Below, piece after piece: positions 5,515-30,286 of a stretch of 64,000 nt of DNA. How positions within the stretch are numbered: position 1 is the stretch's first letter; the number at the start of each line of letters is the position of its first letter. The stretch lies in the NCBI GenBank assembly GCA_913030825.1, contig CAJWCU010000006.1, forward strand, positions 1 to 64,000, given 5' to 3'. The notes under the pieces are model-generated. The model was not told where the DNA came from, made no database searches, and worked only from the letters and a program-made list of their open reading frames with translations. The stretch is from an uncultured Rhodospirillaceae bacterium (GTDB lineage Bacteria > Pseudomonadota > Alphaproteobacteria > Rhodospirillales > Casp-alpha2). Both the position numbers and the translations under genes were made by a program.

Positions 5515-7197
5515 TTACTGCTTTCCGTGCCAGTCCGCGGCAAGGCGCCGGGCATAAACCGCGTCCATGGGTCGGCCGTCCACGGGGGTCGGGCCGACTT
5601 CGCGGCGAGTTTCGGTCATGCCGGATTTTTCCATGATCCGGAGCATGCCGGTATTGCCTTCCAGTGTCCCGGCGGTGACCTGGGCCAATCCCAAATCATC
5701 GAACAGATGTGCCATCACGGCTGACCAGGCTTCGGCGCCGATGCCGGTGCCCCAGGCCGCGCGCTCGCCGATCAGGATGCGGATGTCGCCCGTCGCCGCG
5801 ATGGGATCGACCTCGGTCGAGATGTTGCCGACATGACGGCCGTCCATTGCCTTTTCCCGGATCGCCCACAGTCCGTTGGGGGTTCCGGCGAAACTGGCGA
5901 CGAAATCCCGACAGCTTTCCACGGTATGGCTCGTGTGGCGTTGTTCGGAAAAGCGGACAATCTCGGGGTCGTTCAGCCAGCCGACATAGCGGTCGGTCAG
6001 TAATTCTTGCGGGAACGGCTCTAGGGTCAGGCGCGGGGTTTCCAGGACCGGCGGCGTATAGGGCAGGGTCCCGTCCGGTGCCGGGGGGCGGTTCCCGGAA
6101 ATCGCGGTCAGGGCGCGGGCGATGCGCCCAGCGGCACCCGGACGCGGTGCCCCCGCCGAGTGGGCGGACATAAAGCTGTCCGGATCGTCCAATGCCTCGG
6201 CCAAGGTTCGGCGCAGATCGTCCCGGGTGGTCACGAAGGGGACCAGACCGGGGCCGCCGGACAGCCAAGCCGCCTCGGCCGCGCGCGGCAGGACGGACAG
6301 CACAGGGCAGCCCATCAGCGCCGCTTCGGTCAACAGAGCGGTGGATAGGCCGACCACAAGGTCGGCAGCCAACAGGGCCGGATGGGGTATGGTGCCGCTG
6401 CTGATCGCGGCGATCTCGCCTTTGTAGCCGGCATAAAGGTCCGGCGGCGTTTTCGGATGCAGGCGCAGGGCGACTTTTGTTTTCGGAAGGCTGGCCGCCG
6501 CGTCCAACACTTCTTCCAAAACGATTTCCGTACGGCCGTCGGTGTCGCCCCGCCCGGTCAGACTGTATTCCGGGGTGCGGCGGAACTGCGCCGGGTCTAG
6601 GCCATCGGAAAGCTCGGTCAAAAACAGGATCAGGGCGTCGTCCGGCGGGACGTCGGGGAAAACGTCGTGCCGGAGTGCCGCGCGGTCCCGGCCGGTATCG
6701 GCGGCGGCATCCGCCCGCACCCGATCGAACGCCGGGTTGCCGACGATCCGGATGCGTCCGGCATCCACGCCGAGGGCCAGAAACGCGTCACGCGTTGCCG
6801 TGTCGGGCACCAGAAGCCAGTCCGTCAAATGTGTCAGCGGATCGGCCCCCCGGCCCCGAAGGCGGCGGTCCGCGTTCGCCGGGCCGTCGATCAGGCAGAC
6901 GGTCGTGGCCCCTGCGTCTTTCGCGGCCTGGGCCAGGGGAAAAGCGGGGGTGTCCGGGTCTTCCGACGTGCCGATGACGAAGACGTCGGGCGCCGCGCCC
7001 CGGATCAGGGAAGTCGGGCTCCAGGGAAAGGGCAGCGGGTCCGCATCGACGCCCCGCGCCTGCAGATAGTTTTCCGCTGAAGCCCCGGCCAATAATCGGG
7101 CTGAACCGCCCGCCGCCGTAAGGGCGGACGGAAGGTCCAGGACCATGTTGGCGGCCCCGGGGTCTTCGACGTAGATCAGGATTTTGGGCGCGGCCAC
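5515..7197 (-). CDS. PseG-like GT-B domain fused to PseH-like GNAT acetyltransferase
   Basis: A 560-residue two-domain protein. Residues 1 to about 370 resemble the GT-B fold of PseG/LegG nucleotide-sugar hydrolases and related transferases: an N-terminal Rossmann start (ILIYVEDPGAANMVLDL), then LRLHPKTPPDLY and ADLVVGLSTALLTEAALMGCP. Residues from about 388 to 560 are a GNAT of the PseH/RimJ type (TPRLTLEPF, then YVGWLNDPEIVRFSEQRH, then GTGIGAEAW). Such a pairing would release UDP and acylate an amino sugar in nonulosonate synthesis. Known PseG and PseH are usually separate; the fusion suggests coupled steps. It starts at GTG and is last in the left operon, followed by a hairpin. Substrate is not determinable. 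Confidence 0.72.
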   Translation of the reverse strand: MAAPKILIYVEDPGAANMVLDLPSALTAAGGSARLLAGASAENYLQARGVDADPLPFPWSPTSLIRGAAPDVFVIGTSEDPDTPAFPLAQAAKDAGATTVCLIDGPANADRRLRGRGADPLTHLTDWLLVPDTATRDAFLALGVDAGRIRIVGNPAFDRVRADAAADTGRDRAALRHDVFPDVPPDDALILFLTELSDGLDPAQFRRTPEYSLTGRGDTDGRTEIVLEEVLDAAASLPKTKVALRLHPKTPPDLYAGYKGEIAAISSGTIPHPALLAADLVVGLSTALLTEAALMGCPVLSVLPRAAEAAWLSGGPGLVPFVTTRDDLRRTLAEALDDPDSFMSAHSAGAPRPGAAGRIARALTAISGNRPPAPDGTLPYTPPVLETPRLTLEPFPQELLTDRYVGWLNDPEIVRFSEQRHTSHTVESCRDFVASFAGTPNGLWAIREKAMDGRHVGNISTEVDPIAATGDIRILIGERAAWGTGIGAEAWSAVMAHLFDDLGLAQVTAGTLEGNTGMLRIMEKSGMTETRREVGPTPVDGRPMDAVYARRLAADWHGKQ

Positions 7198-7201
7198 GGG
7201 A

Positions 7202-8233
7202 TCACACCAGCGATTGGCGGGCGCCGTCTTCGGCGGCGGAGCGCAGGATCGCTTCGATGATCCGCTCGTTGGTCAGGGCCGATTCCAAAGGCGACCAGGG
7301 CATGGCGGACCCCGCCGCCGTTTCGGCCAGATTGTCGTACATGCGATAGAGCGAGTCGGCGACCGTGCGCTCAAGCTCTATGCCCGCGTCCGAGGCGATC
7401 TCGTTTTCGTTGGTGACGCCCCGGTTCTCGGTCACCGGGAAGACGCGGGTGACGAGACCTTCCTGAAGGATCGACAGCCGCCCGCCGTCGCCCCAGATAT
7501 CCAAACCTACTTCACGGTAACGGCGAAAATCGAGGGGCTGCAATGTCGCCACGGGGCCGTCGGCGAAGGTCAGGGCGAAGGGAAGATGCCGGTCGCCGGT
7601 GATCGGCGCGCCCAGGGCCGTTTCGTCCGGGCCCACCGCCTGGGCTGCCACGACCTCGCCCAGCAACATGCGCAGGAAATCGATCAGATGCCCGCCGTTG
7701 TTGACGAGCCCGTTGCCGTAAAGTCCGAATACGGCCTGGGGACTGCCGACGTGTTCGGTCAGGCCGCCCGCCGCCAATGCCTGGAACAGGCGGTCGGCCC
7801 GCCGCCAATAATTCACCAGGACCGGCAGGTTCCGTTCGGCGCAGACCGCGCGCAGCGCCGCGCCGTCGCCGTTGCGCTCACCCGTGCCGGGGCTGTTCAG
7901 CGGCTTTTCGACCAAGACGGCCTTTAGGTCCGGCATGGCGGCGACGGCTTTCGCCCGGTCGCCCGGCGGAGCCGCCAGGATCGCAATCTCGGGCCGAACC
8001 TTGGCGATGATCTCGTCCAGGTCACCGCCGCAATGGGGCACGCCCCAGGTGTCGCGGGCATCGGCCTGAGCGGCGCCATTGGGATCGACAACCCCTTGCC
8101 AGTCGAAGGCCGGATGGCCAGCCAGCACGGCGGCGTGGGAGGCATAATCGAAATATTGCGCCATGCGCACGTCGCGGGTCAGGCCCGAGGCGACCTGTCC
8201 GAACCCGACGATGATGGTGCGCAGGCCGGTCAT
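7202..8233 (-). CDS. Gfo/Idh/MocA family sugar oxidoreductase (first copy)
   Basis: A 343-residue NAD(P)-dependent oxidoreductase, probably oxidising or reducing a sugar or nucleotide-sugar in the island pathway. The N-terminal Rossmann motif is IIVGFGQVASGL, the family EKP motif appears as VLVEKPLNS at about 120, and the C-terminal alpha/beta domain includes NNGGHLIDFLRMLLGE, where the family has its catalytic His. The start at 8233 is chosen because its ATG overlaps the previous gene's TGA as ATGA; an upstream in-frame start would only add residues encoded inside that gene. It is translationally coupled to the cytidylyltransferase before it. Confidence 0.8.
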   Translation of the reverse strand: MTGLRTIIVGFGQVASGLTRDVRMAQYFDYASHAAVLAGHPAFDWQGVVDPNGAAQADARDTWGVPHCGGDLDEIIAKVRPEIAILAAPPGDRAKAVAAMPDLKAVLVEKPLNSPGTGERNGDGAALRAVCAERNLPVLVNYWRRADRLFQALAAGGLTEHVGSPQAVFGLYGNGLVNNGGHLIDFLRMLLGEVVAAQAVGPDETALGAPITGDRHLPFALTFADGPVATLQPLDFRRYREVGLDIWGDGGRLSILQEGLVTRVFPVTENRGVTNENEIASDAGIELERTVADSLYRMYDNLAETAAGSAMPWSPLESALTNERIIEAILRSAAEDGARQSLV

Positions 8234-8982
8234 CGCGCCGCCTTTTCTTCGCAATGGGCGTTCAAGGCCGCGATCTCCGGTTGCCGGGCGATCAGGTCAA
8301 GCACCTCGCGGACGCCGAAGCCGTCGCCGTATTTCGGCTCCAACCCCGCGTAGACGGCGCGGATCAATTCCAGGTCTTCTGCGTAATCCAGTTGCAGGCG
8401 CAGATCGGGGCGGGTTTCGGCCTCGGGTGCGGTCATGTGGTGGATGCGGTAGATCTCGGGATGTTCATAGAAATAGAGCGAGACATGTTCACGCACGGCG
8501 GGATCGGATTGCGTCCGCGCAACCTTGTCCAGTGCGTCGAAGGCGAAGACTTGGGCGTCGACGCCTTGCGGCCAGGTCAGTGTCGCGGTGTTGGAGACGA
8601 CATCGACGCCGCCTTCCAGGTAACGACTGACGGCCGCGTCGATGACGCGCGGGTCGAGCAAGGGCGTATCGCCGCAGACCTCGACGACGATTTCCGAGCC
8701 CATCATGCGCTGGGCCTCGACGACTCGGTCGAGCACGTCGTCCTCCGACCCGCGGTAGCAGGGAAGCCGGCGAGCCTCGGCCCAATCGGCGAGCGGATCG
8801 TCCGCCGGATTGGTCGTGGTCGCGAGAACGATGGCGTCCAGCCGGTGGGCCCGGTCGAGCCGCCGCACCAGGCGTTCCAGGGCCGGTGCACCCGCGACAT
8901 CCATCAGCACCTTGCCGGGTAGGCGCGATGCCGACATGCGGGCCTCGACGCTGGCGACGACACGGGGTGCGGCCGGGGCCAT
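8230..8982 (-). CDS. SpsF/NeuA-like cytidylyltransferase (first of three)
   Basis: A 250-residue nucleotidyltransferase of the CMP-sugar synthetase type. The nucleotide-binding start is slightly atypical (ASVEARMSASRLPGKVL), but the SxRLPGK pocket motif is intact. VVEVCGDTPLLDPRVID at about 100-117 carries the metal-binding GDxPLxD, and VREHVSLYFYEHPEIYRI is typical of the SpsF branch. It would activate a sugar acid with CTP. The neighbours are an aminotransferase (3-base gap) and a Gfo/Idh oxidoreductase (4-base overlap). The sugar it accepts cannot be told from sequence; two more paralogues are in the window. Confidence 0.78.
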   Translation of the reverse strand: MAPAAPRVVASVEARMSASRLPGKVLMDVAGAPALERLVRRLDRAHRLDAIVLATTTNPADDPLADWAEARRLPCYRGSEDDVLDRVVEAQRMMGSEIVVEVCGDTPLLDPRVIDAAVSRYLEGGVDVVSNTATLTWPQGVDAQVFAFDALDKVARTQSDPAVREHVSLYFYEHPEIYRIHHMTAPEAETRPDLRLQLDYAEDLELIRAVYAGLEPKYGDGFGVREVLDLIARQPEIAALNAHCEEKAAR

Positions 8983-8985
8983 GGC

Positions 8986-10266
8986 TCAGCCCGCTTCCGC
9001 GTGAGCGTTCAGATCGGCCCGATGGGCGTGAACCTTGCGGATCGCGGCGATCATCTTGTCGGCCAGGGCGTCGTCGACGTCATAGGCGCAGGGCTCGAAC
9101 AGGATCGCCTCGCGTTCGTGCAGGCGTTCGGTCACCGGGCATTGGCCGTCTTCATAGGTGCGGTCCGTCAGGGTGAAGGGCCAGCCTTCGCGGCCGATGG
9201 CCGTGCGCGACTTGAACAGGGGCAGGCGGTAAAGCGGCGGAAGGTAAGCTGGGAAGTTGGGGAAGCCTTCGGCATTCAATGCCTTGCAGAACAATTCTCG
9301 GCTGACGCCGACCTGGGCCTCGTCGTATTTCACCAGCCAGACGTAATAGTTGTGGCGGCAGCCGTCGCGGACCGCCGGCACGGTCCAACCGGCGAGATCG
9401 CGCGTGCCCTCGGACAGCCGTTCGGCCAGCTTTTCCCGGACGGCGACGTGGCGTTCAATATCGGTCAATTGGACCAGGCCGACGGCGGCGGAAAGTTCGG
9501 TCATGCGAAAGTTGAAGCCGACCATGTTGACCAGGTCCGTGACGCCTTCATGCATCGCCGCGTTTTCCGCGTGGTTCCGGATCAACTGCAGGCGCGTCGC
9601 CAGATCGTCGTCGTCGGTGACGCAAACGCCGCCTTCACCGGTATGGATGTGCTTGTGAAAATTCAGGCTGGCGATGCCGATATGGCCGATGGTGCCTGTG
9701 GGCTTGCCGTGCTCCATGCCGAGCGGCGCCTGGGCATTGTCCTCGATCAGGTAGACGCCATGTGCGTCGGCGAGGGCGCGCAACTCCGCCATGCGCGCCG
9801 GATGGCCGAACAGGTTCACGGCGACGATGGCGCGGGTCTTATCGGTGATCTGGGCCGCGACCTTTTCCGGATCGATACAGAAGGTTTCGTCCTCGATATC
9901 CGCAAACACGGGAATGCCGCCATAGATTAGCGGCGAAACGACGGTCGCCGACATGGTCCAGGGCGGCACGATGACCTCGTCACCCGGCGACAGGCCGATG
10001 GCGCCCATGGCGGCGAACAAGCCCGAGGTGTTGGAATTGACGCTGACCGCATGCTTGGCGCCAAAGCGGGCGGCCCAAGCGGCTTCGAACTCCCGGACCT
10101 TGGGGCCGCCCAGAAATTCCGGGCCCGGCGAGCCGAAAAACCCGGACAGGCAACCCGATTGGACGACCGCGCGCACGGCTTCTTCCTCTGGCTTGCCCAT
10201 GGAGGGGTAAGGGGGGAGGTCACCGCCGATGACCGGCGTGCCGCCGAGGAGCGCCAAATCGCTCAT
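8986..10266 (-). CDS. DegT/DnrJ/EryC1/StrS family PLP aminotransferase (first copy)
   Basis: A 426-residue sugar aminotransferase. The PLP lysine is K205 in LNFHKHIHTGEGG, the cofactor-ring aspartate is D176 in IEDNAQA, and the N-terminal VNSNTSGLFAAM forms the phosphate-binding turn. The FHKHIHTGEGG form resembles cyclitol or inosose aminotransferases as much as 4-amino-sugar enzymes, so the substrate may be a keto-sugar other than a UDP-4-keto-hexose. It overlaps the preceding cytidylyltransferase stop by four bases and is almost abutted by the next. It probably supplies one amino group of the final glycan. Confidence 0.85.
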   Translation of the reverse strand: MSDLALLGGTPVIGGDLPPYPSMGKPEEEAVRAVVQSGCLSGFFGSPGPEFLGGPKVREFEAAWAARFGAKHAVSVNSNTSGLFAAMGAIGLSPGDEVIVPPWTMSATVVSPLIYGGIPVFADIEDETFCIDPEKVAAQITDKTRAIVAVNLFGHPARMAELRALADAHGVYLIEDNAQAPLGMEHGKPTGTIGHIGIASLNFHKHIHTGEGGVCVTDDDDLATRLQLIRNHAENAAMHEGVTDLVNMVGFNFRMTELSAAVGLVQLTDIERHVAVREKLAERLSEGTRDLAGWTVPAVRDGCRHNYYVWLVKYDEAQVGVSRELFCKALNAEGFPNFPAYLPPLYRLPLFKSRTAIGREGWPFTLTDRTYEDGQCPVTERLHEREAILFEPCAYDVDDALADKMIAAIRKVHAHRADLNAHAEAG

Positions 10267-10985
10267 GTCAGGCTCCCTTCGTTCATTGAAATCTTCATAT
10301 CATGTTCGCGAGCCAGACGCGCGATCTCGCCGAGACCGGCATCGCGCGACGACAGGTGCGCGGCGATCCATTCGGCGCGGGCGAAATCCTCGGGCCGGTC
10401 CACGGCCAGATGCAGGGCGGCATGGCCGTCCTCCGCATAGTCCGGGCCGTTTGCCGCGACGTTGACGATCCGGTAGGCGTCCGGGTTTTCGTAGGCGTGC
10501 AGCGTGACGTGTTCGCGCTTGGCAATGTCTGAGACCTCGGCGTCCAGGCGCTCCAGGGTCGCCAGCGGGACGGCTTCGGCGCTGATGCCCGGCGGGAAAC
10601 TGCGGGGGAAGACGTTGGTCGTCAGGTCCGGCTTCTCGCGGTCGTGGACCCGCGCCACGGCGGTAATCAGCGCCGGGTCAATGAAGGGACTGTCGGCGGA
10701 AATCCGGATCAGGGTGTCGAGGGCAAAGGTGCGCGCGGCGGCCAGCGCTCGGCCGAGCACGTCGGCCCCGTCGCCGCGAAACAGGTCGAGCCGGGCGGCC
10801 TCGGCGAATTCGGCAATGGGATCGTCGACGGCCCGGTCGGAGGTCGCCAGCATGACCGGCAGGCCGGCTGCGCGGCTGCGCTGCAGCGTCCAATCGAGCA
10901 TCGGCGTACCGGCCAGCGGTTTCAGCACCTTGGCAGGCAGGCGCGATGAATCCAGACGCGCGAAGATCACGATACCGGCGGTCAT
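10263..10985 (-). CDS. SpsF-like cytidylyltransferase (second of three)
   Basis: A 240-residue member of the cytidylyltransferase (SpsF) family: IVIFARLDSSRLPAKVL at the N-terminus, LIRISADSPFIDPALI for the metal-binding region and IAKREHVTLHAYENPDAYRIV in the acceptor lobe. Two positions differ from the first copy (PAKVL for PGKVL, ADSPFID for GDTPLLD), so it may have a different substrate or weaker activity. The ATG at 10985 overlaps the TGA of the GNAT gene before it (ATGA), which decides the start over an in-frame codon eight residues upstream. Confidence 0.75.
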   Translation of the reverse strand: MTAGIVIFARLDSSRLPAKVLKPLAGTPMLDWTLQRSRAAGLPVMLATSDRAVDDPIAEFAEAARLDLFRGDGADVLGRALAAARTFALDTLIRISADSPFIDPALITAVARVHDREKPDLTTNVFPRSFPPGISAEAVPLATLERLDAEVSDIAKREHVTLHAYENPDAYRIVNVAANGPDYAEDGHAALHLAVDRPEDFARAEWIAAHLSSRDAGLGEIARLAREHDMKISMNEGSLT

Positions 10986-11740
10986 GGCGCCACCTTGGGG
11001 TTTACCCAATGCAGGGTCACGTCGCGCCGTTCGACCGCAAACCCGGCTCGTTCATAGAGCCGCATGGAAGCCAGGTTGTCTTCCTGGGTGCCGACGCGAA
11101 TGCCGTCGATGGTGTCGCCGAAATGGTCGAAGGCGGCTTCGATCATCTGCCCGGCGATGCCCTGGCGGCGGAAAGGGGCTGCGACGGCGATCAGGTCGAT
11201 GATCGCGGTGCGGCCTGTCAGAAGGCAGAGGTTGAAGCCCGCGACCTGTCCGTCGATCCGGGCGACCAGCGGGGCGGCGGCGCGCCCGGCCATGTCGTTA
11301 CGCACCCAGGCGGCGCGGATCGCGTCGGCGACGGTGTCGGGGACATAGGGGTCGCGATGCAGTCGGTCGAAGGTGAAGGCGCTTAGCGCCAGATCGACGC
11401 AGGTATCGGTCTCATCGGCGCGTGCTGGTCCCGTTTCGATGCGCAGGTCCCGCGCCGGACGGGAGGTCTGATAAAATGTCACCAGGGTCTCGATGGGGTG
11501 AAACCCGGCGGCTTCAAGGGCGTTGATCTGGTCCGCCCGCTCGGCGGGGACGCGGCAGGAGACCAACCAGGTCCCACCGTCGTGCCAGGCAGTTACCATA
11601 TCCATTAACTGGGCGGAGAGGTCCCGATCGGCCTCGGCCGGGACTGTCAATTTGGCCACGGGCACGCCCGCGATGCCGGTTTCGAACGTCTGTTCCCGGC
11701 AATCTAGGGCAGCGGCATATGCGGCCCCGGCGGCGGTCAT
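10982..11740 (-). CDS. GNAT family N-acetyltransferase (WecD-like)
   Basis: A 252-residue protein starting MTAAGAAYAAALDCREQTF. The C-terminal half is a GNAT fold: VARIDGQVAGFNLCLLTG, then IIDLIAVAAPFRRQGIAGQMIEAAF (acetyl-CoA pyrophosphate loop, R/Q-x-x-G-x-G/A) and VGTQEDNLASMRLYERAGFAV. The N-terminal half (about 1-125) resembles WecD-type dTDP-amino-sugar acetyltransferases. The start at 11740 forms ATGA with the upstream methyltransferase stop; the longer frame reaching back to 12115 runs out of frame through that gene and is not real. It probably N-acylates an amino sugar of the pathway. Confidence 0.8.
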   Translation of the reverse strand: MTAAGAAYAAALDCREQTFETGIAGVPVAKLTVPAEADRDLSAQLMDMVTAWHDGGTWLVSCRVPAERADQINALEAAGFHPIETLVTFYQTSRPARDLRIETGPARADETDTCVDLALSAFTFDRLHRDPYVPDTVADAIRAAWVRNDMAGRAAAPLVARIDGQVAGFNLCLLTGRTAIIDLIAVAAPFRRQGIAGQMIEAAFDHFGDTIDGIRVGTQEDNLASMRLYERAGFAVERRDVTLHWVNPKVAP

Positions 11741-12636
11741 GGCGTCGGGCCGTCCGCCATATAGAAGCCCTGCGTTTCCTTGTCCCAGCGTTCGAAGAAG
11801 CCGAGTACGGCGGTCGCGTTGTCGCCTTCCCAGGAAATCGGAGCGGTGCGGTCGGTCTTCTCGCCGACCATGACCAGATAGTCGCTGTCGATGAAGCGAT
11901 TGACGTCGGTCATGCGGAACCCGGCCTGTGCCATATGCCCGGCCAGCGTCTTGGCCGAGAAGTGATGCGGGTGCACGTCGGCGTTGGGGCCGATGTAGTA
12001 CTGCAGCGGTTTCTTGAACGGCACCAGAATACGCGAGCCCGTGGCCACGGCGACACGGCCGCCCGGTTTGCATAGCCGCCAGGCGGCGTCCATCACGTCG
12101 CTCGCCGAATGACAATTTTCCAAGGTCCAGATGATCGTGACGACGTCGAAGGTCCCCAAACGGTCCTGGGCCTGATCGACGTATTCCTCGGCTATGCCCA
12201 GGAAGTTGGGAATGTTCCGTTCGTCCAGCATCCGGCAGTTGGCGGCAGAGGGTTCGACCGCGAAGACCTCGCCCGCACCGTAGTCATCGCCGCGAAGGAC
12301 CTCCAGGAAGTCGCCTTCACCGGCGCCCAGGTCGCAAACGCTTTTGCCGCGAAAGGAGACGGCTTCGTCGATGAAATCCATGGCGAAGGTCTGGCGGGCA
12401 TGCACGGCGGGCATGCGGGCCGTGTAGGTGGCATCGGACAGGCGGGTCTTTTCATCGACCCGGTACATTTCATCGGCCCAGGCGGTTTTGACCTCTTCCG
12501 GCGTTTTTCGGAAGGCGACCTGAACCATCCCGCAGGAATTGCAGACGTGCAGGGGACGGCCCGCCATATAGGTCGGCGCGCAGGCGATCTCCGCCAAGTC
12601 GTCGCTGCCGCAAAGGTCGCAGGGATAAAGTTCCAT
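11737..12636 (-). CDS. Class I SAM-dependent methyltransferase with N-terminal zinc-binding domain
   Basis: The 299-residue product begins with a four-cysteine zinc site (C6, C9, C32, C35; CDLCGS...CNSCGMVQ) of the kind found on nucleotide-sugar and small-molecule C-methyltransferases. The SAM site is VCDLGAGEGDF at about 100-110, followed by acidic loop FAVEPS and TFDVVTIIWTLENCHS. In this position it is probably a sugar C- or N-methyltransferase adding a methyl group to the flagellar glycan. It lies 41 bases after the amidotransferase and overlaps the GNAT by four bases. Confidence 0.82.
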   Translation of the reverse strand: MELYPCDLCGSDDLAEIACAPTYMAGRPLHVCNSCGMVQVAFRKTPEEVKTAWADEMYRVDEKTRLSDATYTARMPAVHARQTFAMDFIDEAVSFRGKSVCDLGAGEGDFLEVLRGDDYGAGEVFAVEPSAANCRMLDERNIPNFLGIAEEYVDQAQDRLGTFDVVTIIWTLENCHSASDVMDAAWRLCKPGGRVAVATGSRILVPFKKPLQYYIGPNADVHPHHFSAKTLAGHMAQAGFRMTDVNRFIDSDYLVMVGEKTDRTAPISWEGDNATAVLGFFERWDKETQGFYMADGPTP

Positions 12637-16328: not shown

Positions 16329-16438
16329 GATAGTCTCCTCTTTCTGAGCCGTTCCCGCCGTTTCTGGGCGGTACTGTGAATGCAGGGAACACGGGATTTT
16401 CCAGGCACTAATCCCAGCTTTCACTATCAGGCTCTAAT

Positions 16439-21998: not shown

Positions 21999-22733
21999 CT
22001 AACTCGCCGGCGCGGAGGATACACGGTAGGTCGGGTCGAACAATTCGGGGCGCCGCTCGGCCAGTCCCTCCAGTTCGGCGACTCCGAACGTCGGATTGTC
22101 GGGGTAGAGGATGTCGAAGATTTCCGTGATCCGCCGATAATCGTGTTGGGTATCCAGCAGGCATTTGAGATTCGTGCGGTCGGGTTGGCGGCGCAATTCG
22201 AGGATCGGAAACCGTTCGGGTTGACGGAGGAAGAACGGCATCAGGTTCTCGCGTTCGTACATGTCGTCGGTCTCTGCGTCCAAGGCGCGGAGGGCATCGA
22301 CGCGAAGGATGTGGCTTTCGACCCCTTCAGGATAGCCGGAATCATTCGGGTAATGGGCCCAGGCGGCGCCCGTCGCCAGGGCGGCCTGGAGCAGTCCGGT
22401 GGCGAGATCGGGGTCGGTCACCGGGCAGTCTCCCCACATGCGGACGATCACATCGGCGCCGGTCAGGTCCGCCGCCATCAGAAAGCGGGTGACGAGATCA
22501 TCGTCGGGGCCGCGCACGACGTTGATCTTCGGATAACCGGCGGCGGCTTCCTCAAGCGGATCGTTCGCTTCGCCCGTCGGGATCGCCAGCACCAAGTCGT
22601 CGACGCCGCGGATGCGTAGTGCGCGGTCGAACAGGTGGTGCATGACGGGCCGCCCGGCCAGCGGCAGGATCGCCTTTCGTGCCAGGCGGATCGAGGTCAA
22701 TCGCGCCTGAATGACGCCCGTAACCTTGGTCAT
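21999..22733 (-). CDS. SpsF/NeuA-like cytidylyltransferase (third of three)
   Basis: A 244-residue member of the SpsF/CMP-sugar synthetase family: GVIQARLTSIRLARKAILPLAGRPVMHHLFDR at the N-terminus (RLARK in place of RLPGK), VIVRMWGDCPVTDPDLATG in the metal site and TDDMYERENLMPFFLRQPERFPIL in the acceptor lobe. It lies close to the NeuB synthase, so it is the best candidate in the window for the CMP-nonulosonate step. ATG 22733 follows AAGGAG by ten bases and sets the start. Confidence 0.74.
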   Translation of the reverse strand: MTKVTGVIQARLTSIRLARKAILPLAGRPVMHHLFDRALRIRGVDDLVLAIPTGEANDPLEEAAAGYPKINVVRGPDDDLVTRFLMAADLTGADVIVRMWGDCPVTDPDLATGLLQAALATGAAWAHYPNDSGYPEGVESHILRVDALRALDAETDDMYERENLMPFFLRQPERFPILELRRQPDRTNLKCLLDTQHDYRRITEIFDILYPDNPTFGVAELEGLAERRPELFDPTYRVSSAPAS

Positions 22734-22767
22734 GATCGGATCGCTCCTTCGATGGAGGCTGAAAACA

Positions 22768-24624
22768 TCATTGGACTTCAACACCTTGTTGGTCGAGGAA
22801 AATGCGCGCGGAGATGAAGCTGAACAGGAACTTGGAAAAGCTGTTCGACGTCATGTCGTCGTCCAGGAAGGCCGTGAACTTGTCGCGGTCGATGAGGTCG
22901 AAGATCGGCCCGGGTGCGAGTAGCCGGTCGCGGGTTTCCGGGTTGCCGCGGTCGACGAGGGAATTGATCGAGGCATTGAAGCCGCGTTTGCGTTTGTCCA
23001 AACGGACCGCGTCCGGCACCAATCCTTCGCCCGATTGCCGCAGGAGCCATTTGGCGAAACCATGCCCCATCAGATATTCCGACGGCACATTGAAAAGAAA
23101 CTCGGTGAGGTGTCGGTCGAGGAACGGCGAACGGTTCTCGACCGACCAGCGCATGGAGTTGCAATCGTCCTCATGCAGCAGGACGGGGACGGCTTCGGCG
23201 AAAAGCTCGTTCATCATGCGGTTGCGCAGCAACTCCCGCGTGAATTCCGTTTCGTGGAAATCTTCATGAAACGGGCGGGCGAGCAGACTTTCGAAGACGT
23301 CCTGGTCCAACGTGATATGGCCGCGCTGATCCGGGTCGCGGACAAAGGTCATGGGATCCTGGAGCAGGGGGTTCTGTACATGCGCGCCGAACCCACCTTT
23401 CCAATCGGCGAGCAGGGTTTCGAAATCGACGGAGGGGTCGATCTGCGACCGCCGCCACATCTGCGCCAACCACATCGAGTAGTGATCGTAATACCCGGTA
23501 TAGATTTCGTCGGCACCGGAGCCGGATACGGCGACCTTGTACCCGGCGTCGTGGATCGCCTGCGACAGAAAGGAATGGACGTAGTAGCTGATCGTCGCGA
23601 CCGGCGCATCGTGGTATGCGATCAGGTCATCCATCCGTTCGAAAAACCCGTCCGGCGACGTATGGGTGACGTGATGGTCGCAGTTCAGGGCATCGACCAT
23701 GGTCTTGATGTTGGCGCTTTCGTCATAACGTTCGTCGCTGTCGATGATCGAAAAGCAATGGATGTCGGCGCCCAGTTTCTTGGCCGCGATCGCCGACAAG
23801 GTCGCGGAATCGACGCCTCCCGACAGGCAGAACGCGACCGGCACGTCCGCCCGCAGGCGCAATTCAACGGATCGGAACAATCGCTCGCGGGCTTCTTCCA
23901 ACGCGTCCGCCGCCGACATGGGGCGCGGAATGTGTTTCAGCTGCCAATAGAATTCGGGTTGATGCAGGGCCGGGGACGTGAGCGTCAAATAGGTCGACGG
24001 CGGTAATTCGAAGACACCGTCAAAGAAGGTGTCGCCGGACTTGTACAGCGATTTGTAACCGAGCGTCAGATAGCGCAACACCTGTGTCTCATTGACCGCG
24101 GGACGGGCGCCGGCCAAGGCAGCCAGGGTTTTGATCTCGGACGCGAAATACAGCGTTCCGTCTTTGGGCCAGAGATAAAGAGGTTTTTCCCCGAACCGGT
24201 CGCGGCACAGCGTCAGCGTCCCGGCCCGGGTATCGATCAGGGCGAAGGCCCACATGCCTTCCATCCGGTCGAGCGCCGCCGGGCCCCATTGCCGCCATGC
24301 GGCCAGCAGCACTTCCGTGTCCGAGGTCGTCTCGAACGCATGGCCCAGGGATTCCAGTTCGGCCTTCAACTCCAGGTAATTGTATATCTCGCCGTTGTAG
24401 GCGACGGTCAGTCCGTCGCGTTCCAACGGTTGATTGGCGCGCGGGTCCAAATCGATGATCGACAAGCGCGTATGCAGCAAGGCCGCCTGCTGACCGTCGG
24501 CGCCGAGCGCCAATACTTGGTGGCCCGAAGCATCGGGCCCGCGCCGATCCATGGTCCGCAGAGCGTTTTCGATGCGCCCTGCATCCGGCGCCACCTGGCC
24601 GAGAGTTCCTGCGATACCGCACAT
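22768..24624 (-). CDS. asnB: Asparagine synthase-like glutamine-dependent amidotransferase
   Basis: A 618-residue AsnB-type enzyme: C2 is the N-terminal nucleophile (MCGIAG), with the class II glutaminase domain to about 190 (RGPDASG, YNGEIYNYLEL, SDTEVLLAAW) and a synthetase domain with PP-loop SGGVDS at 268-273. Such enzymes in polysaccharide loci often amidate uronic or aldonic carboxyls rather than making free asparagine. With a NeuB-type sugar acid pathway next to it, amidation of a sugar carboxyl is plausible but unproven. It lies 10 bases after the formyltransferase-like gene. Confidence 0.83.
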   Translation of the reverse strand: MCGIAGTLGQVAPDAGRIENALRTMDRRGPDASGHQVLALGADGQQAALLHTRLSIIDLDPRANQPLERDGLTVAYNGEIYNYLELKAELESLGHAFETTSDTEVLLAAWRQWGPAALDRMEGMWAFALIDTRAGTLTLCRDRFGEKPLYLWPKDGTLYFASEIKTLAALAGARPAVNETQVLRYLTLGYKSLYKSGDTFFDGVFELPPSTYLTLTSPALHQPEFYWQLKHIPRPMSAADALEEARERLFRSVELRLRADVPVAFCLSGGVDSATLSAIAAKKLGADIHCFSIIDSDERYDESANIKTMVDALNCDHHVTHTSPDGFFERMDDLIAYHDAPVATISYYVHSFLSQAIHDAGYKVAVSGSGADEIYTGYYDHYSMWLAQMWRRSQIDPSVDFETLLADWKGGFGAHVQNPLLQDPMTFVRDPDQRGHITLDQDVFESLLARPFHEDFHETEFTRELLRNRMMNELFAEAVPVLLHEDDCNSMRWSVENRSPFLDRHLTEFLFNVPSEYLMGHGFAKWLLRQSGEGLVPDAVRLDKRKRGFNASINSLVDRGNPETRDRLLAPGPIFDLIDRDKFTAFLDDDMTSNSFSKFLFSFISARIFLDQQGVEVQ

Positions 24625-24634: not shown

Positions 24635-25348
24635 TCAAGAAGCGCCTTCGGCGCGTTGAGTGAAGCGGGAAATGCAATAGTCCTTCAGCGCCGCCGGCAT
24701 CGGGGAATAGAGTTTGCCTTGTCGGTGCAGCTGGTTAACCGAGAGCATCCCGCCGTTCGCGAAGTAGTGCAGGGCCTTCATCGCACCGGTGATACAAGTA
24801 TCGGTGGTCGCGCGGCGAAGTTCGCGGAGCGCCATGCCGGCCGGAATATCCGGCCGCGCCGCGAATAGAACAGGCCCGGTGTTGACCTCGGCGGCGGCTT
24901 GCTGGACGACGCATTCCAATCTGTTTTCCTCACCGTGATAGGTTGCCCAAAGGTGGACGTCCTCTCCCCGGTAATCCTGGGGGTCTGCCCCGTGCAATAC
25001 GATCATGCGGGTTCCCATGAGGTCCCGGGGCGCCGTACCGACCGGCCCACCGTCCAAAACGATTGCGACGTCGGTGCCAGATGCCCGAAGGGTCTCGGCA
25101 ACGCCGTCTTCGGTCATATCCAAGACCGGAGCAACGGAGGCGAAATCGCCAAGACCGGGGGATGTGCCCCCGAACCAGGTCTCCGATTCATATGCCGTTT
25201 GTTCGGCATCGAACGGGTGGGATGTTTCAAAAGGCAACGACGGAACCTTCGTTCGAACGATGATGGCGGCAAGGTCATAGGTCTCGGCTAACACCTGGGC
25301 GCACCGGCGGGCAGGGGGACCGTCTGTCGTGAGAAGTGCGACCCGCAT
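24635..25348 (-). CDS. Formyltransferase-like protein with altered catalytic residues
   Basis: A 237-residue protein of the formyl_trans_N fold: MRVALLTTDGPPARRCAQVL at the start and VLHGADPQDYRGEDVHLWA near 117-135, equivalent to the NxHxSLLPxxRG...WA signature. H119, R127 and G128 are kept. The catalytic Asn is V117, and the Asp of the later DTG motif is N156 (EVNTG). Sugar N-formyltransferases normally keep all three catalytic residues, so this may be inactive, have shifted chemistry or use another acyl donor. It sits 6 bases after neuB, so it belongs to the same transcript. Confidence 0.6.
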   Translation of the reverse strand: MRVALLTTDGPPARRCAQVLAETYDLAAIIVRTKVPSLPFETSHPFDAEQTAYESETWFGGTSPGLGDFASVAPVLDMTEDGVAETLRASGTDVAIVLDGGPVGTAPRDLMGTRMIVLHGADPQDYRGEDVHLWATYHGEENRLECVVQQAAAEVNTGPVLFAARPDIPAGMALRELRRATTDTCITGAMKALHYFANGGMLSVNQLHRQGKLYSPMPAALKDYCISRFTQRAEGAS

Positions 25349-25354: not shown

Positions 25355-26362
25355 TCACATCTCTTCCAGATGACCGAATTGGATCAGGTCACCTTGCGTC
25401 ACGTCCCTGTTCAGGCGGCGGTTCAGCACCTCGTTCTCGCGCCCGGGCGGAATGCCTTCTCCCGGGCGAACCCAGACGATGTCGTCGATGGCGAGGACAT
25501 GGCCCGCCGCAAGGTCTCGTCCGGCGGCGATCGATCGGCGGACCGGCGTCACCAGGTCCCGTTCACAGGCCATGGTACCCAGCTGCCCGTCGCCGGTCAT
25601 GTCCTCCACCGCGCGGATGCGGCGCACGAGTGTGGCCATGTCGTCCGGGTCGGCGGACAGTTGATGATCGCGGAAATCGGAATAGTCGTTGGCCAGGGTG
25701 AAATGCTTCTCGACGATACGGGCCCCCATGGCGACGGCCGCCACGGCGGCGTCGAGCCCCATGGTGTGGTCCGAATACCCGATCGTCTGATTCGGGAAGG
25801 CGGCTTTCAGAGACGCAATGGCGCCAAGGTTGGCTTGCTCCGGCGGCGCCGGATAGCTGACGATACAATGAAGCAGGGCAAGCTCGCCCGCGATATTTCC
25901 GGCGGCCCAACGGCCATTGACACGCGAGACGGCTTCCTGGATTTCGTCCTGTCCCGAAATCCCGGTCGAGATGATCATCGGTTTGCCGCTGTCCGCGCAG
26001 CACTCGATCAACGGCCAAAAGGTATTGTCGCCGGAGGCGATCTTGATCGCGTCGACGATGGTCGCAAGGAAACGGGCGCTCTCGAGGTCCAGGGGCGTGG
26101 AAAAGAACATCAAGCCCTTTGCCCGGGCGCGTTCGGCCAGTTCCGCGAAATCGTCGAACGAAAGTTGAAACTGTTTCAGGCGCGCGATCCGGGCGGGATC
26201 GACGGGGGATGTGAATTTCTCGGTGATGAAGGTTTGGAATTTGACGACGTCGACGCCGGTTTCCGCGGCGCGATCGACCATTTCCCGTGCGGCGCCCATG
26301 TCGCCTTCGTGATTGTTGCCGATCTCGGCAATGATCAAAGTTCGGTCACGGTTGGTGAACAC
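25355..26362 (-). CDS. neuB: N-acetylneuraminate synthase family protein (NeuB/PseI/LegI)
   Basis: A 335-residue aldolase-type synthase that condenses phosphoenolpyruvate with an N-acyl hexosamine to give a nine-carbon sugar acid. IIAEIGNNHEGD at the N-terminus, VVKFQTF, the metal/PEP region IGYSDHTMGL, and EKHFTL are diagnostic. A C-terminal SAF (antifreeze-like) domain, about 275-335, includes RRSIAAGRDLAAGHVLAIDDI and closes the active site of the partner subunit. The GTG at 26362 (GGAG seven bases upstream) precedes FTNRDRTLII; the longer frame is untranslated-like leader. It heads the right-hand operon. Neuraminic, legionaminic and pseudaminic types cannot be separated by eye. Confidence 0.9.
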   Translation of the reverse strand: MFTNRDRTLIIAEIGNNHEGDMGAAREMVDRAAETGVDVVKFQTFITEKFTSPVDPARIARLKQFQLSFDDFAELAERARAKGLMFFSTPLDLESARFLATIVDAIKIASGDNTFWPLIECCADSGKPMIISTGISGQDEIQEAVSRVNGRWAAGNIAGELALLHCIVSYPAPPEQANLGAIASLKAAFPNQTIGYSDHTMGLDAAVAAVAMGARIVEKHFTLANDYSDFRDHQLSADPDDMATLVRRIRAVEDMTGDGQLGTMACERDLVTPVRRSIAAGRDLAAGHVLAIDDIVWVRPGEGIPPGRENEVLNRRLNRDVTQGDLIQFGHLEEM

Positions 26363-26553
26363 GCTTTTGCTCCATCGTTTCCGCCTCTCCAGGGACTGGC
26401 GCGTAAGATGCCGTCCGGCGGTATCGCATCGTTTCAAGGTAGGGGCTAAACACTTAATGATCCATTTAGACCGCGCCAAGTGGCCCGGGTTGAATGCGGC
26501 CACTTCCGGGGGATGAGGTTGCTTCGTCCGAAGCGGCGTCTGCCCGTCATATA

Positions 26554-26641: not shown

Positions 26642-27946
26642 ATGCAGAAATTTACGGAACCCTTTGTCGTCAATACGATCGACGGCCTTAAGGCGCCGAA
26701 ATCCCAATCGCGCGATTTGTTGATCGATTGGATCTTCGAGGACGAGGACCTGCGCCGTTTCCTGCACCAACAAGGTGCCGAATGCGCCTGGATGCTGTCC
26801 GACCAGAACGCGTTTCTTCAGTTCTTGAAGGTGTCGCTCGACCGGTATTTTGAAAGCGGCGAGGCGACGATTGCCCCGGACGAGCAATATGCCCGCATCG
26901 GCGAATACGCATCGGAGTTCAACAGGATCAGCACTCGGTTCGCGCCCAGCACCAAGCCGAACCCGGAAGCCGTGTTCTGGCCGGACCCGACGCAAGGCGG
27001 GGCGAAGTTGCAGGACGTTCTGCCCGTTGCGGTGACCCACCCGTTCATCGATCACGGATCGCGCATCGGATCCGCCGGCAGTTGCTTCGCCATCGAAATC
27101 GCGCAGAACCTGATGTCGCGTGGGTTCAATTACATCTGCCAGGAAACGACCTACGACGCCGAGACGGAAACCATTGTCATGGGGACGTCCCCGGAGGATC
27201 CGGTCGTCCAGTATTCCTGCCGATGGGGAATTCTGTTCAACACGCCAAGTTTTACCCAGATTGTCGAGAATGCCTTCGGGGTTCGCCCCTTGCCACCGCT
27301 GCTGGTCCGATACGAGCTCGGAAACGAGATCGTCTATCTGGACCCGTATCGCGAAAACGTCATGTTCAAGTCGCCCGATGCCTACATGGTGGAGCGGGAG
27401 AAACATGCCGCCAATACCCGCGCGGTGTTCGAAAACGCCGATGTCTTCGTGATGACCCTGGGGTTGAACGAAGCCTGGCAGTACCTGCCGGACGGCACCT
27501 ATATCTCGCGCAATCCCCGCAATAAGAACCTCAACGGGCTGCTGACGCACCGGACGTTGTCGGTCGAGGAGAACATCGACTATCTGCAGCGCTTCGTCGA
27601 TGTGGTTCGCGCCCACAACCCAAATATCAAATTGGTCGTCACGGTCTCCCCCGTCCCGTTTCTGGCGACCGGGCGGGCGGACGAATACCATGTCATCACC
27701 GCGAACGGCCATTCCAAGGCGGTCCTACGGGTCGCCGCGCAGGAGATTGTCGAGCGCAACGAGAACGTGTTCTATTTCCCGAGCTACGAAGTCGTGACGG
27801 TCTGTTCGCCAGAGATTTGGACCGAAGATCAACGCCACGTACACCCGGATGCCATTCGCCGGGTCATGGCGACGTTCGACGAAATGTTCCTGACGGATGA
27901 AGCCAAGGCGAAAGTCCAAGCCGCGTCTGCGGCCGGGGAAGCCTAG
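26642..27946 (+). CDS. GSCFA-domain protein (first of tandem pair)
   Basis: A 434-residue protein named for the diagnostic GSCFA at 146-150 (SAGSCFAIEIA). GSCFA proteins belong to the SGNH-hydrolase-like superfamily, and the later blocks DVFVMTLGLNEAWQ and VTVSPVPFLATG fit that fold, with a C-terminal HVHPDAIRRVM region. No signal peptide is visible, so it acts in the cytoplasm. The neighbouring copy at 27991 is alike over the whole length. Function is unknown in general; esterase or acyltransferase action on sugars is a reasonable inference in a glycan island. The N-terminal about 100 residues are extra compared with the core domain. Confidence 0.82.
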   Translation: MQKFTEPFVVNTIDGLKAPKSQSRDLLIDWIFEDEDLRRFLHQQGAECAWMLSDQNAFLQFLKVSLDRYFESGEATIAPDEQYARIGEYASEFNRISTRFAPSTKPNPEAVFWPDPTQGGAKLQDVLPVAVTHPFIDHGSRIGSAGSCFAIEIAQNLMSRGFNYICQETTYDAETETIVMGTSPEDPVVQYSCRWGILFNTPSFTQIVENAFGVRPLPPLLVRYELGNEIVYLDPYRENVMFKSPDAYMVEREKHAANTRAVFENADVFVMTLGLNEAWQYLPDGTYISRNPRNKNLNGLLTHRTLSVEENIDYLQRFVDVVRAHNPNIKLVVTVSPVPFLATGRADEYHVITANGHSKAVLRVAAQEIVERNENVFYFPSYEVVTVCSPEIWTEDQRHVHPDAIRRVMATFDEMFLTDEAKAKVQAASAAGEA

Positions 27947-29277: not shown

Positions 29278-29302
29278 TGACGGCCGGCGGAACGGAGTAG
29301 GG

Positions 29303-30286
29303 ATGAGTTCTTTTCAGTACGCCATCGATCCGCAAGGAGACGTGCAGACGACCGAGGAATTGATCGCCTGGTCGGCCAATTCGTCATGGCAGCGGTACTG
29401 GCTTTTCCATCGGTTCTGTCAGGACCGCTACCAACAAGTGACCGGTGGCCCACCGGCGCCGTTGGCGGGCGGGAACGCGCTTGCCGAACGGGGCATCAGC
29501 CTTCATCCCGGGATGCTGAACCTGGGCGGCTGCAACGCGATGACCCAGGCGATCGACCAATACATGGCGGACGTGCTGCCGGAAAACGGTACGCCGGACC
29601 TGTCCTATACGGTGCCTTGGACCGGCCATCAGGCGCATTTGCTGAAACGCATTCTGCCGCAAATTCTGTCGCCGTCGGTCGAGGCCGAATTGGAAGAATA
29701 CTACGGCAGCTATTTCCAGGTCCTCGCGGTCAACCTGCGGCGGAATTTCCCGTCCGACGGGCGGGACGTTTCGTTCCTCTGGCATCGGGATCACGAGCCG
29801 AGCCAGCAGGTCCATCTGATCGTTTACTTGAGTGGGGCGTCGGATGAGGGGGGGCGGACCGAGGTTCTGGATTTCCAGGCGACGCGCGAAGCGGCGGAAG
29901 CGGGATACAGTTTTCCCAGCCTGGAGGACCGTAGCGACGACCTGAATGCCGTCTTCGGCCGTCAGGCGGACGATGTGACCATAACGTCACCGGAATTCGG
30001 CCCGGGCGGCGGATTGCTGTTCGCGGCACCCCGGGCCCTGCATCGCGGGCGCCTGCCGCGCACGAAATGGCGGGACACGTTGCTTTTCCTGTTCCTCCCG
30101 AGCCCGGTTCCCTGGCGGGACCGCCTTGCCCATACGTTCAACAGTGTTCTGATGAACGGCGCGAACGTCAGTTCCTGCATGGTCAATCCCCTGCGGAAGT
30201 TCGCGCGGTCGGAGATGGCGCATCATGGCGATGCACCGGATTGGGCAAAGCTGGGCGAACTCTATCCGCCGGACGGCAAGCCCTAA
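29303..30286 (+). CDS. Phytanoyl-CoA-dioxygenase-like Fe(II)/2OG oxygenase (second copy)
   Basis: A 327-residue paralogue of the gene at 17787-18761. H161 and D163 in WHRDHE and H247 in ALHRG make a plausible iron site; R257 follows ten residues after the distal His, as in the other copy. ATG 29303 has GGAG upstream; an in-frame start at 29246 would lie inside the preceding gene. It ends the GSCFA-GSCFA-oxygenase transcript and converges on flbT. Hydroxylation of a flagellar glycan or lipid-linked intermediate is inference from context only. Confidence 0.68.
   Translation: MSSFQYAIDPQGDVQTTEELIAWSANSSWQRYWLFHRFCQDRYQQVTGGPPAPLAGGNALAERGISLHPGMLNLGGCNAMTQAIDQYMADVLPENGTPDLSYTVPWTGHQAHLLKRILPQILSPSVEAELEEYYGSYFQVLAVNLRRNFPSDGRDVSFLWHRDHEPSQQVHLIVYLSGASDEGGRTEVLDFQATREAAEAGYSFPSLEDRSDDLNAVFGRQADDVTITSPEFGPGGGLLFAAPRALHRGRLPRTKWRDTLLFLFLPSPVPWRDRLAHTFNSVLMNGANVSSCMVNPLRKFARSEMAHHGDAPDWAKLGELYPPDGKP

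What the first reader, a model, noticed from the sequence alone, without database searches (positions are those of the whole stretch)
5515..30286. A 25-kb sugar island lies between the hook operon and the flagellins, with a mixture of pathway parts not known together
It combines a NeuB synthase, three cytidylyltransferases, a PseG/GNAT fusion, a PseA/WbpG-HisH-HisF amidination set, two Gfo/Idh enzymes, two aminotransferases, an AsnB-like enzyme, a formyltransferase-like protein, a sulfotransferase-like protein, a methyltransferase, two Fe/2OG-type oxygenases and two GSCFA proteins. Known Pse and Leg loci hold subsets of these. The product is probably an amidinated nonulosonic acid with additional, possibly new, decorations or more than one sugar.
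Basis: partly seen in the sequence, partly recalled or inferred. Interest (0 to 1): 0.86.

Follow-up and report, generated by a model that had tools for sequence, protein, structure and literature searches.

The report
Modular flagellin sugar locus, third synthase
Between the hook genes and the flagellin genes this bacterium carries a conserved set of sixteen enzyme genes that probably build an unusual acidic nine-carbon sugar to coat its flagellum; the key synthase belongs to a lineage separate from those for the known sugars of this kind.

Summary
The island is real. Most labels were confirmed by profile searches. "PseG" fails (remote UDP-GlcNAc 2-epimerase/GT-B relative); "sulfotransferase" stays unproven; an SDR, a WecD-like acetyltransferase and a GT9-like protein were missed.

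It is not a random mixture. Sixteen of its genes keep their order in 8 genomes of two families, and in 10 of 10 loci with both ends visible flagellin lies on one side and FliK on the other. Parts are separable. Cassette A (CTP transferase, Gfo/Idh, DegT, SDR, GNAT, NeuB, AsnB, WbuX) recurs, whole or nearly, in Bacteroidota, Lentisphaerota and other Pseudomonadota. Cassette B (DegT, CTP transferase, Gfo/Idh, epimerase-like) keeps its order in 17 of 17 genomes, four with a Pse-type synthase instead. One congener keeps B but lacks NeuB.

The genome has Leg- and Pse-type synthases elsewhere; the island NeuB is a third lineage, below both curated cut-offs. No 4,6-dehydratase is recognisable in the locus.

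Best reading: a modular flagellin-glycosylation locus making an amidinated, probably N-methylated nonulosonic acid through a new synthase lineage, plus a second sugar or substituent. Chemistry is inferred. New variant of a known kind.

The parts
5518..7197 (-).
   Evidence: Acetyltransf_3 71.2 bits, Epimerase_2 21 bits under cut-off; 9-sequence profile finds WecB 3dzc at E 5.7e-6; fused in G000, G002, G004-G007, open frames of 365-372 aa without the GNAT in G030 and G038
7205..8254 (-). Cassette B: Gfo/Idh oxidoreductase (Gfo2)
   Evidence: PF01408 and PF02894
8233..8982 (-). Cassette B: cytidylyltransferase (CMP3)
   Evidence: PF02348 84.9 bits
8989..10266 (-). Cassette B: DegT aminotransferase (AT2)
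   Evidence: PF01041 269.9 bits; PseC model 198.8, cut-off 423.5
10266..11009 (-). Cytidylyltransferase (CMP2)
   Evidence: PF02348 78.4 bits; next to AT2 in 13 of the 17 genomes with cassette B
10985..11740 (-). Cassette A: WecD-like GNAT acetyltransferase
   Evidence: Acetyltransf_1; WecD model best, 62 bits, cut-off 219
11740..12636 (-). Methyltransferase, candidate amidine N-methyltransferase
   Evidence: Methyltransf_23 62.5 bits; next to WbuX; role inferred from PtmG/PtmH
12681..13787 (-). WbuX/PseA-type N-acetyl sugar amidotransferase
   Evidence: TIGR03573 326.7 bits, cut-off 203.2
13830..14600 (-). HisF-like partner of WbuX
   Evidence: WbuZ model 213.4 bits, cut-off 299.7
14582..15196 (-). 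HisH-like glutaminase partner
   Evidence: TIGR01855 228.6 bits, cut-off 105.4
15243..16424 (-). Cassette A: SDR, epimerase/reductase-like, without the dehydratase glutamate
   Evidence: PF01370 130.9 bits; SSS[T/M]VYG in 12 of 12 sequences against STSEVYG in own LegB; meaning of the motif recalled
16569..17768 (+). GT9-like protein, related to the TPR-glycosyltransferase at 34080 (variable part)
   Evidence: PF01075 22.3 bits, cut-off 22; 33% identical to 34080-35513 over 350 aa
17790..18770 (-). Fe/2OG-type (PhyH) oxygenase (variable part)
   Evidence: PF05721 23.3 bits, cut-off 22; metal ligands kept
18859..20010 (-). Cassette A: DegT aminotransferase (AT1)
   Evidence: PF01041 331.2 bits; best PDB sequence ArnB, 175.5 bits
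20010..21047 (-). Cassette A: Gfo/Idh oxidoreductase (Gfo1)
   Evidence: PF01408 78 bits
21047..22024 (-). Sulfotransferase-like protein, unproven (variable part)
   Evidence: No Pfam hit; homologue weakly Sulfotransfer_3; motifs by eye
22002..22784 (-). Cytidylyltransferase (CMP1), next to AsnB
   Evidence: PF02348 54 bits
22771..24624 (-). Cassette A: AsnB-type glutamine amidotransferase with N-terminal MCGIAG
   Evidence: TIGR01536 393.7 bits, cut-off 267.1; MCGIAG in 14 of 14
24638..25348 (-). Formyltransferase-family protein with altered catalytic triad
   Evidence: PF00551 19.7 bits, cut-off 26.1; alignment
25358..26503 (-). Cassette A: NeuB-family synthase, third lineage
   Evidence: PF03102 230.7 bits; 293.6 of 399.65 (NnaB) and 229.7 of 340.25 (PseI); trees. 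Start codon uncertain: relatives match from about residue 38-56 on
26642..27943 (+). GSCFA protein 1 (variable part)
   Evidence: PF08885 155.6 bits
27991..29274 (+). GSCFA protein 2 (variable part)
   Evidence: PF08885 154.5 bits
29246..30283 (+). Second Fe/2OG-type protein (variable part)
   Evidence: 30% identical to 17790-18770, E 9e-42; ligands; no Pfam hit
31079..32380 (+). Flagellin 1, presumed acceptor
   Evidence: Flagellin_N and Flagellin_C
32639..33940 (+). Flagellin 2, presumed acceptor
   Evidence: Flagellin_N and Flagellin_C
34080..35513 (+). TPR + GT9-like protein with FlmG-like architecture
   Evidence: TPR models, and PF01075 at 21.4 bits, cut-off 22
35538..37643 (-). Maf-type flagellin glycosyltransferase
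   Evidence: PF20157 148.9 bits and PF01973 104.5 bits, both over cut-off

Best explanation
The region is a modular flagellin O-glycosylation locus. Cassette A (CTP transferase, Gfo/Idh, DegT aminotransferase, SDR, GNAT, NeuB, AsnB, WbuX) makes and CMP-activates a nonulosonic acid through a NeuB lineage distinct from the Leg- and Pse-type synthases of the same genome. WbuX with HisH-HisF turns an N-acetyl group into an acetamidino group, which the neighbouring methyltransferase probably N-methylates, as PtmG and PtmH do. AsnB adds a further glutamine-derived nitrogen, as a carboxamide or an amidine. Cassette B (AT2, CMP3, Gfo2, epimerase-like protein with GNAT) makes a second sugar or an amino substituent. 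Maf, and perhaps TPR-type glycosyltransferases, next to the flagellin genes attach the product. Oxygenases, GSCFA proteins and the sulfotransferase-like protein are species-specific tailoring. Shown: families, gene order, linkage to flagellar genes, separability, synthase lineage. Inferred: every chemical step, the sugars and the acceptor.
For: Family assignments. Sixteen genes in one order (MTase and GNAT swapped in G024 and G030) in 8 genomes (G000, G002, G004, G005, G007, G024, G030, G038) of two families. Flagellin on the NeuB/AsnB side and FliK on the other in 10 of 10 loci with both ends visible, with Maf beyond the flagellin in 9; in G005 the contig ends there. Third NeuB lineage: below both cut-offs (also 4 of 4 relatives), module NeuBs one group at 99/89, split with a sister group from own Leg- and Pse-type synthases at 100/99. 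Leg- and Pse-type synthases on contig C3. Cassette A in other phyla; WbuX over its cut-off in L040, L041, L042. Cassette B order in 17 of 17. G006 as natural split. PtmG/PtmH precedent (PMC3766260, passages).
Against: No flagellin or sugar was analysed. A cassettes outside this order showed no flagellin match in the stretches fetched, so A is not flagellum-specific. The NeuB slot is loose: G078 and G017 carry a 39-41% identical NeuB among otherwise well-kept genes, and G006 has none, so the tie between NeuB and the rest is not strict. AsnB also lies beside a NeuB outside the group in L074. No own 4,6-dehydratase or clear NeuC/PseG was found in the locus, so the pathway may lean on the C3 clusters. 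Most relatives are metagenome-assembled.
Confidence: 0.62

Rival explanations
1. The product is an ordinary Leg- or Pse-type acid. The island borrows dehydratase, hydrolase/epimerase or even the synthase from the C3 clusters, adds amidine, methyl and acyl groups, and its divergent NeuB is only a fast-evolving synthase of a known acid.
For: Leg-type cluster (LegB, LegC, NeuC-NeuB fusion) and PseI in the same genome. G006 keeps B, AsnB and WbuX-HisH-HisF without a close relative of the island NeuB. Cassette B stands with a PseI-type NeuB in four f19 genomes. PtmG/PtmH-type set present.
Against: The NeuB lineage is old, shared across phyla and bound to its own partners, which is not what mere fast evolution predicts. 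The C3 Leg-type cluster has its own HisF, HisH and WbuX.
Confidence: 0.22
2. The locus makes two unrelated glycans: the A product for flagellin and the B product, or the reverse, for another surface structure.
For: A occurs without B (L040, L041, L042, L058, G276, G313, G609) and B without A's NeuB (G003 contig, G006, four f19 genomes).
Against: Where both ends are visible the two units share one interval between flagellin and FliK, mostly on one strand; they share WbuX-HisH-HisF between them.
Confidence: 0.1
3. The locus serves a capsule or lipopolysaccharide and sits beside flagellar genes by chance.
For: Cassette A relatives outside the order have no flagellin match in the stretches fetched.
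Against: The flagellin-to-FliK position holds in 10 of 10 loci, in four genera of two families, and Maf is next to the flagellin in 9 of them.
Confidence: 0.06

Closest known systems
Legionaminic acid pathway of Campylobacter and Legionella with PtmG/PtmH (Leg5AmNMe7Ac; PMC3766260, passages)
   Same: NeuB-family synthase, DegT aminotransferase, amidotransferase plus a methyltransferase, CMP activation
   Different: The island has no LegB or clear LegG, its SDR lacks the dehydratase glutamate, NeuB is below the curated cut-off, and AsnB, two Gfo/Idh and three CTP transferases are extra. Homology of the island methyltransferase to PtmH was not tested.
Tannerella forsythia O-glycan cluster with pse genes and an AsnB-like protein (PMC6120980, passages)
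   Same: A 605-aa AsnB-like protein in a nonulosonic acid cluster, proposed there for the acetamidino group of Pse
   Different: pseBCFHGI is complete there, the passages read describe an S-layer O-glycan, and WbuX or HisH/HisF are not mentioned in them
Bacillus subtilis sps legionaminic pathway (PMC7439481, passages)
   Same: SpsE (NeuB family), SpsC, SpsD and SpsF cytidylyltransferase; the island CTP transferases look SpsF-like (motif recalled)
   Different: SpsM starts it; spore crust, not flagellin; no amidination mentioned in the passages read
Shewanella oneidensis sfmABCDE flagellin cluster (PMC3765264, passages)
   Same: A NeuB-family flagellin-modification locus lacking some known Pse enzymes; a 274-Da putative nonulosonic acid with a methylated substituent
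   Different: Other gene content (oxoacyl reductase-like SfmC, ATP-grasp protein)
Maf and FlmG flagellin glycosyltransferases (PMC7591256, passages)
   Same: Maf domains over cut-off; TPR + GT-B-like architecture at 34080
   Different: Caulobacter uses FlmG without a Maf; here Maf and FlmG-like proteins are neighbours

Membership tests
Nonulosonic acid (NeuB-type) biosynthesis | NeuB-family synthase with SAF domain | tested here: met
   PF03102 230.7 bits and PF08666 32.5 bits, both over cut-off; aligned with SiaC/NeuB of solved structure
Nonulosonic acid (NeuB-type) biosynthesis | CTP transferase for activation | tested here: met
   Three PF02348 proteins over cut-off; substrate unknown
Legionaminic/neuraminic pathway | NnaB-type synthase over curated cut-off | tested here: not met
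   293.6 of 399.65 bits; the C3 copy reaches 442.9
Legionaminic pathway | LegB 4,6-dehydratase and LegC in the locus | tested here: not met
   SDR 67.9 of 475; AT1 189.1 and AT2 180.3 of 420; both are met by the C3 cluster
Pseudaminic pathway | PseI, PseC, PseG over cut-off, PseB present | tested here: not met
   NeuB 229.7 of 340.25; AT1 273.2 and AT2 198.8 of 423.5; no PseB or PseG model hit among the 20 proteins scanned
Acetamidino modification (PseA/PtmG/WbpG type) | N-acetyl sugar amidotransferase with HisH/HisF partners | tested here: met
   WbuX and HisH over cut-off, HisF-like WbuZ under it, adjacent genes
Acetamidino modification (PseA/PtmG/WbpG type) | Amidine on the product, methylated or not | not testable with these tools
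   Needs mass spectrometry or NMR
4,6-dehydratase (SDR at 15243) | Acidic residue of the active-site S-x-[DS]-E-V-Y-G motif (recalled) | tested here: not met
   T or M in 12 of 12 sequences; E in own LegB
Maf flagellin glycosylation | Maf glycosyltransferase near flagellin | tested here: met
   35538-37643 over cut-off; next to flagellin in 9 of 10 complete loci
FlmG-type glycosyltransferase | TPR N-terminus and GT-B C-terminus that bind and modify flagellin | tested here: inconclusive
   TPR over cut-off, GT9 at 21.4 of 22 bits; not compared with FlmG itself
Flagellin glycosylation system | Modified flagellin | not testable with these tools
   Needs protein mass data

The most novel reading that the evidence does not exclude
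Cassette A makes a further family of nonulosonic acid, distinct from Neu, Leg and Pse and spread over at least three phyla. Its amino group would come from direct oxidation (Gfo/Idh or SDR) and transamination rather than 4,6-dehydration, so that C9 keeps its hydroxyl. It would carry both an amidine (WbuX) and an AsnB-made carboxamide, which would remove the negative charge of the sugar. Alphaproteobacteria put it on flagellin and extend it with cassette B.
Probability: 0.33. Interest if true: 0.76.

Novelty: new variant of a known kind. Interest (0 to 1): 0.56.

Why it matters
Nonulosonic acid clusters are usually read from gene content as Neu, Leg or Pse. Here a synthase lineage below both curated models is bound to a recurring set of partners across phyla, and sits in the flagellar locus of a genome that also holds Leg- and Pse-type synthases. 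If the product is new, a sugar class has been missed by annotation; if it is not new, a second route to a known sugar exists. The reduced island of G006 and the different NeuB in G078 and G017 give ready comparisons for mass spectrometry.

Tried and rejected
PseG label: rejected for the domain at 6058-7197. A profile of 9 sequences finds WecB (3dzc) at whole-sequence E 5.7e-6, its two stretches being weak alone. A single-sequence AlphaFold2 model was useless (mean pLDDT 38.6), so no fold search was made.

Sulfotransferase label: motifs look right by eye, but the profile against PDB found only ribosomal L24 matches and Pfam only sub-threshold hits in one of three proteins scanned. Left open.

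Gfo1-AT1 as a GnnA/GnnB- or WbpB/WbpE-like C3-amination pair (recalled): set aside, because C3 of the hexose becomes C6 of the nonulosonic acid, whose oxygen closes the ring (own reasoning), and because AT1 scores better on ArnB (175.5 bits) than on WbpE (126.2). Not excluded if the pair acts elsewhere.

AsnB as a mark of the NeuB group: 18 of 67 NeuB rows had AsnB (36% identity or more) within 4.5 kb, and all lie in one group of 19; the 19th, G035, is untestable (contig ends 136 bases after the match). Exceptions: L074 (Nitrospirota) has AsnB at 35.7%, just under my cut, next to a NeuB outside the group; G078, in the sister group, has NeuB followed by AsnB. For the second tree I dropped 10 rows (long branches and second NeuB-like copies, L074 and G006 among them), added 5, counted G035 as a member and did not label G078 as one.

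Genome counts are lower bounds: the tool scored at most 4-6 candidates a genome, and E cut-offs were strict (G078's NeuB is missed).

Literature: nine searches listed no description that I recognised of this gene set in the held open-access library; listings and abstracts only, apart from passages of seven papers. Subscription papers are mostly missing from it.

Full report
WHAT IS THERE. The window is contig C6, bases 1-64000, of a 3.99-Mb draft genome. Its nearest named relatives are metagenome-assembled Rhodospirillaceae and Rhodospirillales. From left to right: flagellar hook genes (FlgE-like 162-2552, FlgD 2663-3442, FliK 3489-5309), the island (5518-30283), two flagellins, a TPR + GT9-like protein and a Maf glycosyltransferase. 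Nineteen island genes run on the minus strand, overlapping or within 90 bases of each other except around the GT9-like gene, and all were read without internal stops. The GT9-like gene, the GSCFA pair and the second oxygenase run on the plus strand.

LABELS. Corrections: the 'PseG' domain is not PseG but a remote relative of UDP-GlcNAc 2-epimerase and other GT-B proteins. The SDR, the WecD-like acetyltransferase and the GT9-like protein were missed. The sulfotransferase is unproven. The formyltransferase-family protein has lost the Asn and Asp of the N-H-D triad (triad recalled) in the window and in 5 of 5 congeners aligned, while G045 and G038 keep them.

IT IS CONSERVED AND FLAGELLAR. NeuB relatives at 76-81% identity occur in 5 of 7 other species of the genus. 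In the order, 15 of 317 genomes, the own one included, have a NeuB at E <= 1e-75; in a sample of the phylum 3 of 398, own included. Gene maps show sixteen genes, NeuB - AsnB - CMP1 - Gfo1 - AT1 - SDR - HisH - HisF - WbuX - MTase/GNAT - CMP2 - AT2 - CMP3 - Gfo2 - epimerase-like, in this order in 8 genomes: G000, G002, G004, G005, G007, G024, G030 and G038. MTase and GNAT are swapped in G024 and G030, FMT is missing there, and G038 has an insertion of about 13 kb between WbuX and MTase. G078 has the same order with a 39% identical NeuB and no GNAT match before CMP2. In 10 of 10 loci with both ends in view (those eight, G078 and the reduced G006) flagellin lies on the NeuB/AsnB side and FliK on the epimerase side, at distances up to about 15 kb. 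Maf lies beyond the flagellin in 9; in G005 the contig ends there and Maf is on another contig. These are four genera of two families. The oxygenases, GSCFA proteins, sulfotransferase-like and GT9-like proteins come and go.

A THIRD SYNTHASE LINEAGE. The genome has two more NeuB genes, on contig C3. One is a NeuC-NeuB fusion beside LegB and LegC, all over their cut-offs; the other is a PseI over its cut-off. The island NeuB reaches 293.6 of 399.65 bits (NnaB) and 229.7 of 340.25 (PseI), and L040, L041, L042 and L058 also fall short of both, 4 of 4 tested. In a tree of 62 rows the module NeuBs (19 rows, one of them, G035, at a contig end) form one group at 99/89. With a sister group of four (G017, G023, G034, G078) they are split from own Leg-type and own PseI by a 100/99 branch (midpoint root). 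The first tree, of 67 rows, gave the same group at 95/90, with two long rows placed nearby.

SEPARABLE UNITS. Cassette A is eight genes (CTP transferase, Gfo1, AT1, SDR, GNAT, NeuB, AsnB, WbuX). All eight have a match in L040 (Bacteroidota), L042 (Oceanospirillaceae; GNAT weak) and G276; in the last two AT1-SDR stands apart downstream. G609 has AT1 about 20 kb away, G313 lacks a GNAT match, L058 (Lentisphaerota) ends inside AsnB, and L041 (Bacteroidota) shows no Gfo1, CTP-transferase or GNAT match. In L040, L041 and L042 WbuX passes its cut-off with no HisH or HisF match in the stretch. Cassette B (AT2, CMP3, Gfo2, epimerase-like) has one order in 17 of 17 genomes that hold the epimerase-like gene. 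Four of these, family f19, carry a NeuB that groups with own PseI at 100/100, with their own WbuX-HisH-HisF. G006, a one-contig congener, keeps the epimerase-GNAT fusion, Gfo2, CMP3, AT2, CMP2 (42% identity), WbuX, HisF, HisH, CMP1, AsnB and FMT (38%) in place, while NeuB, Gfo1, AT1, SDR, GNAT and MTase have no match in that stretch. Only for NeuB was the whole G006 genome searched: no close relative, though a NeuB-like fragment lies beyond FliK. In their place stand acyl-group genes (AMP-ligase, FkbH-like, KASIII, MaoC-SDR) and a DUF2172/DUF4910 protein.

HOW IT PROBABLY WORKS. Shown: families, order, the MCGIAG start of AsnB (14 of 14), Fe/2OG ligands. Inferred: AT1 with SDR or Gfo1 introduces an amino group (AT1 is nearest to PseC among NCBIfam models, and to ArnB among solved structures) and GNAT acylates it (WecD model best, under cut-off). 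NeuB condenses the sugar with PEP, and a CTP transferase activates it. WbuX with HisH-HisF amidinates and the neighbouring methyltransferase methylates, as in the PtmG/PtmH step (PMC3766260, passages). AsnB adds another nitrogen; in Tannerella an AsnB-like protein was proposed for the acetamidino group (PMC6120980, passages), so amidine rather than carboxamide is possible. Because the SDR has T or M where own LegB has E, and no other dehydratase was recognised in the locus, the product may keep its 9-hydroxyl unless LegB on C3 helps out. Cassette B adds a second sugar or an amine. Maf, and possibly the FlmG-like TPR proteins, attach it.

VERDICT. The system is a new variant of a known kind, nonulosonic acid glycosylation of flagellin, built on a synthase lineage and partner set of which nine library searches listed no description.

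Noticed in passing
24638-25348: The formyltransferase-family protein keeps only His of the Asn-His-Asp triad in the window and 5 of 5 congeners aligned, whereas G045 and G038 keep all three and G038 passes the Pfam cut-off: decay or a new role.
   Followed up: partly
L129:15929-16882 (G078) and L101:223-1200 (G017): In these genomes the NeuB by the flagellin is only 39-41% identical, while SDR (75-76%) and AT1 (59-63%) are well kept; the two NeuBs sit in a sister group. The synthase may have been exchanged.
   Followed up: partly
L082 and L083 (G006:C1:2720000-2754999): A congener's reduced island has acyl-chain genes (KASIII, MaoC-SDR, AMP-ligase, FkbH-like) and a DUF2172/DUF4910 protein; Cj1295, which modifies the Campylobacter flagellin glycan (title and abstract in the listing), is recalled to hold DUF2172.
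   Followed up: partly
L081:13372-15845 (G006): A NeuB-family protein lacking the first 54 profile positions follows a GT2 + CTP_transf_3 fusion, beyond FliK. Similar second NeuB-like domains occur near flagellar genes in G034.
   Followed up: no
34080-43065: A Maf, a TPR + GT9-like protein, a TPR protein and a TPR + GT41 protein lie together beside the flagellins; Caulobacter uses FlmG and has no Maf (PMC7591256, passages). A second Maf domain is at G000:C6:126593.
   Followed up: partly
L004 (G000:C3:44000-63999) and L005 (G000:C3:98000-117999): A Leg-type cluster with a NeuC-NeuB fusion and its own HisF-HisH-WbuX, and a PseI cluster, lie on one other contig.
   Followed up: partly
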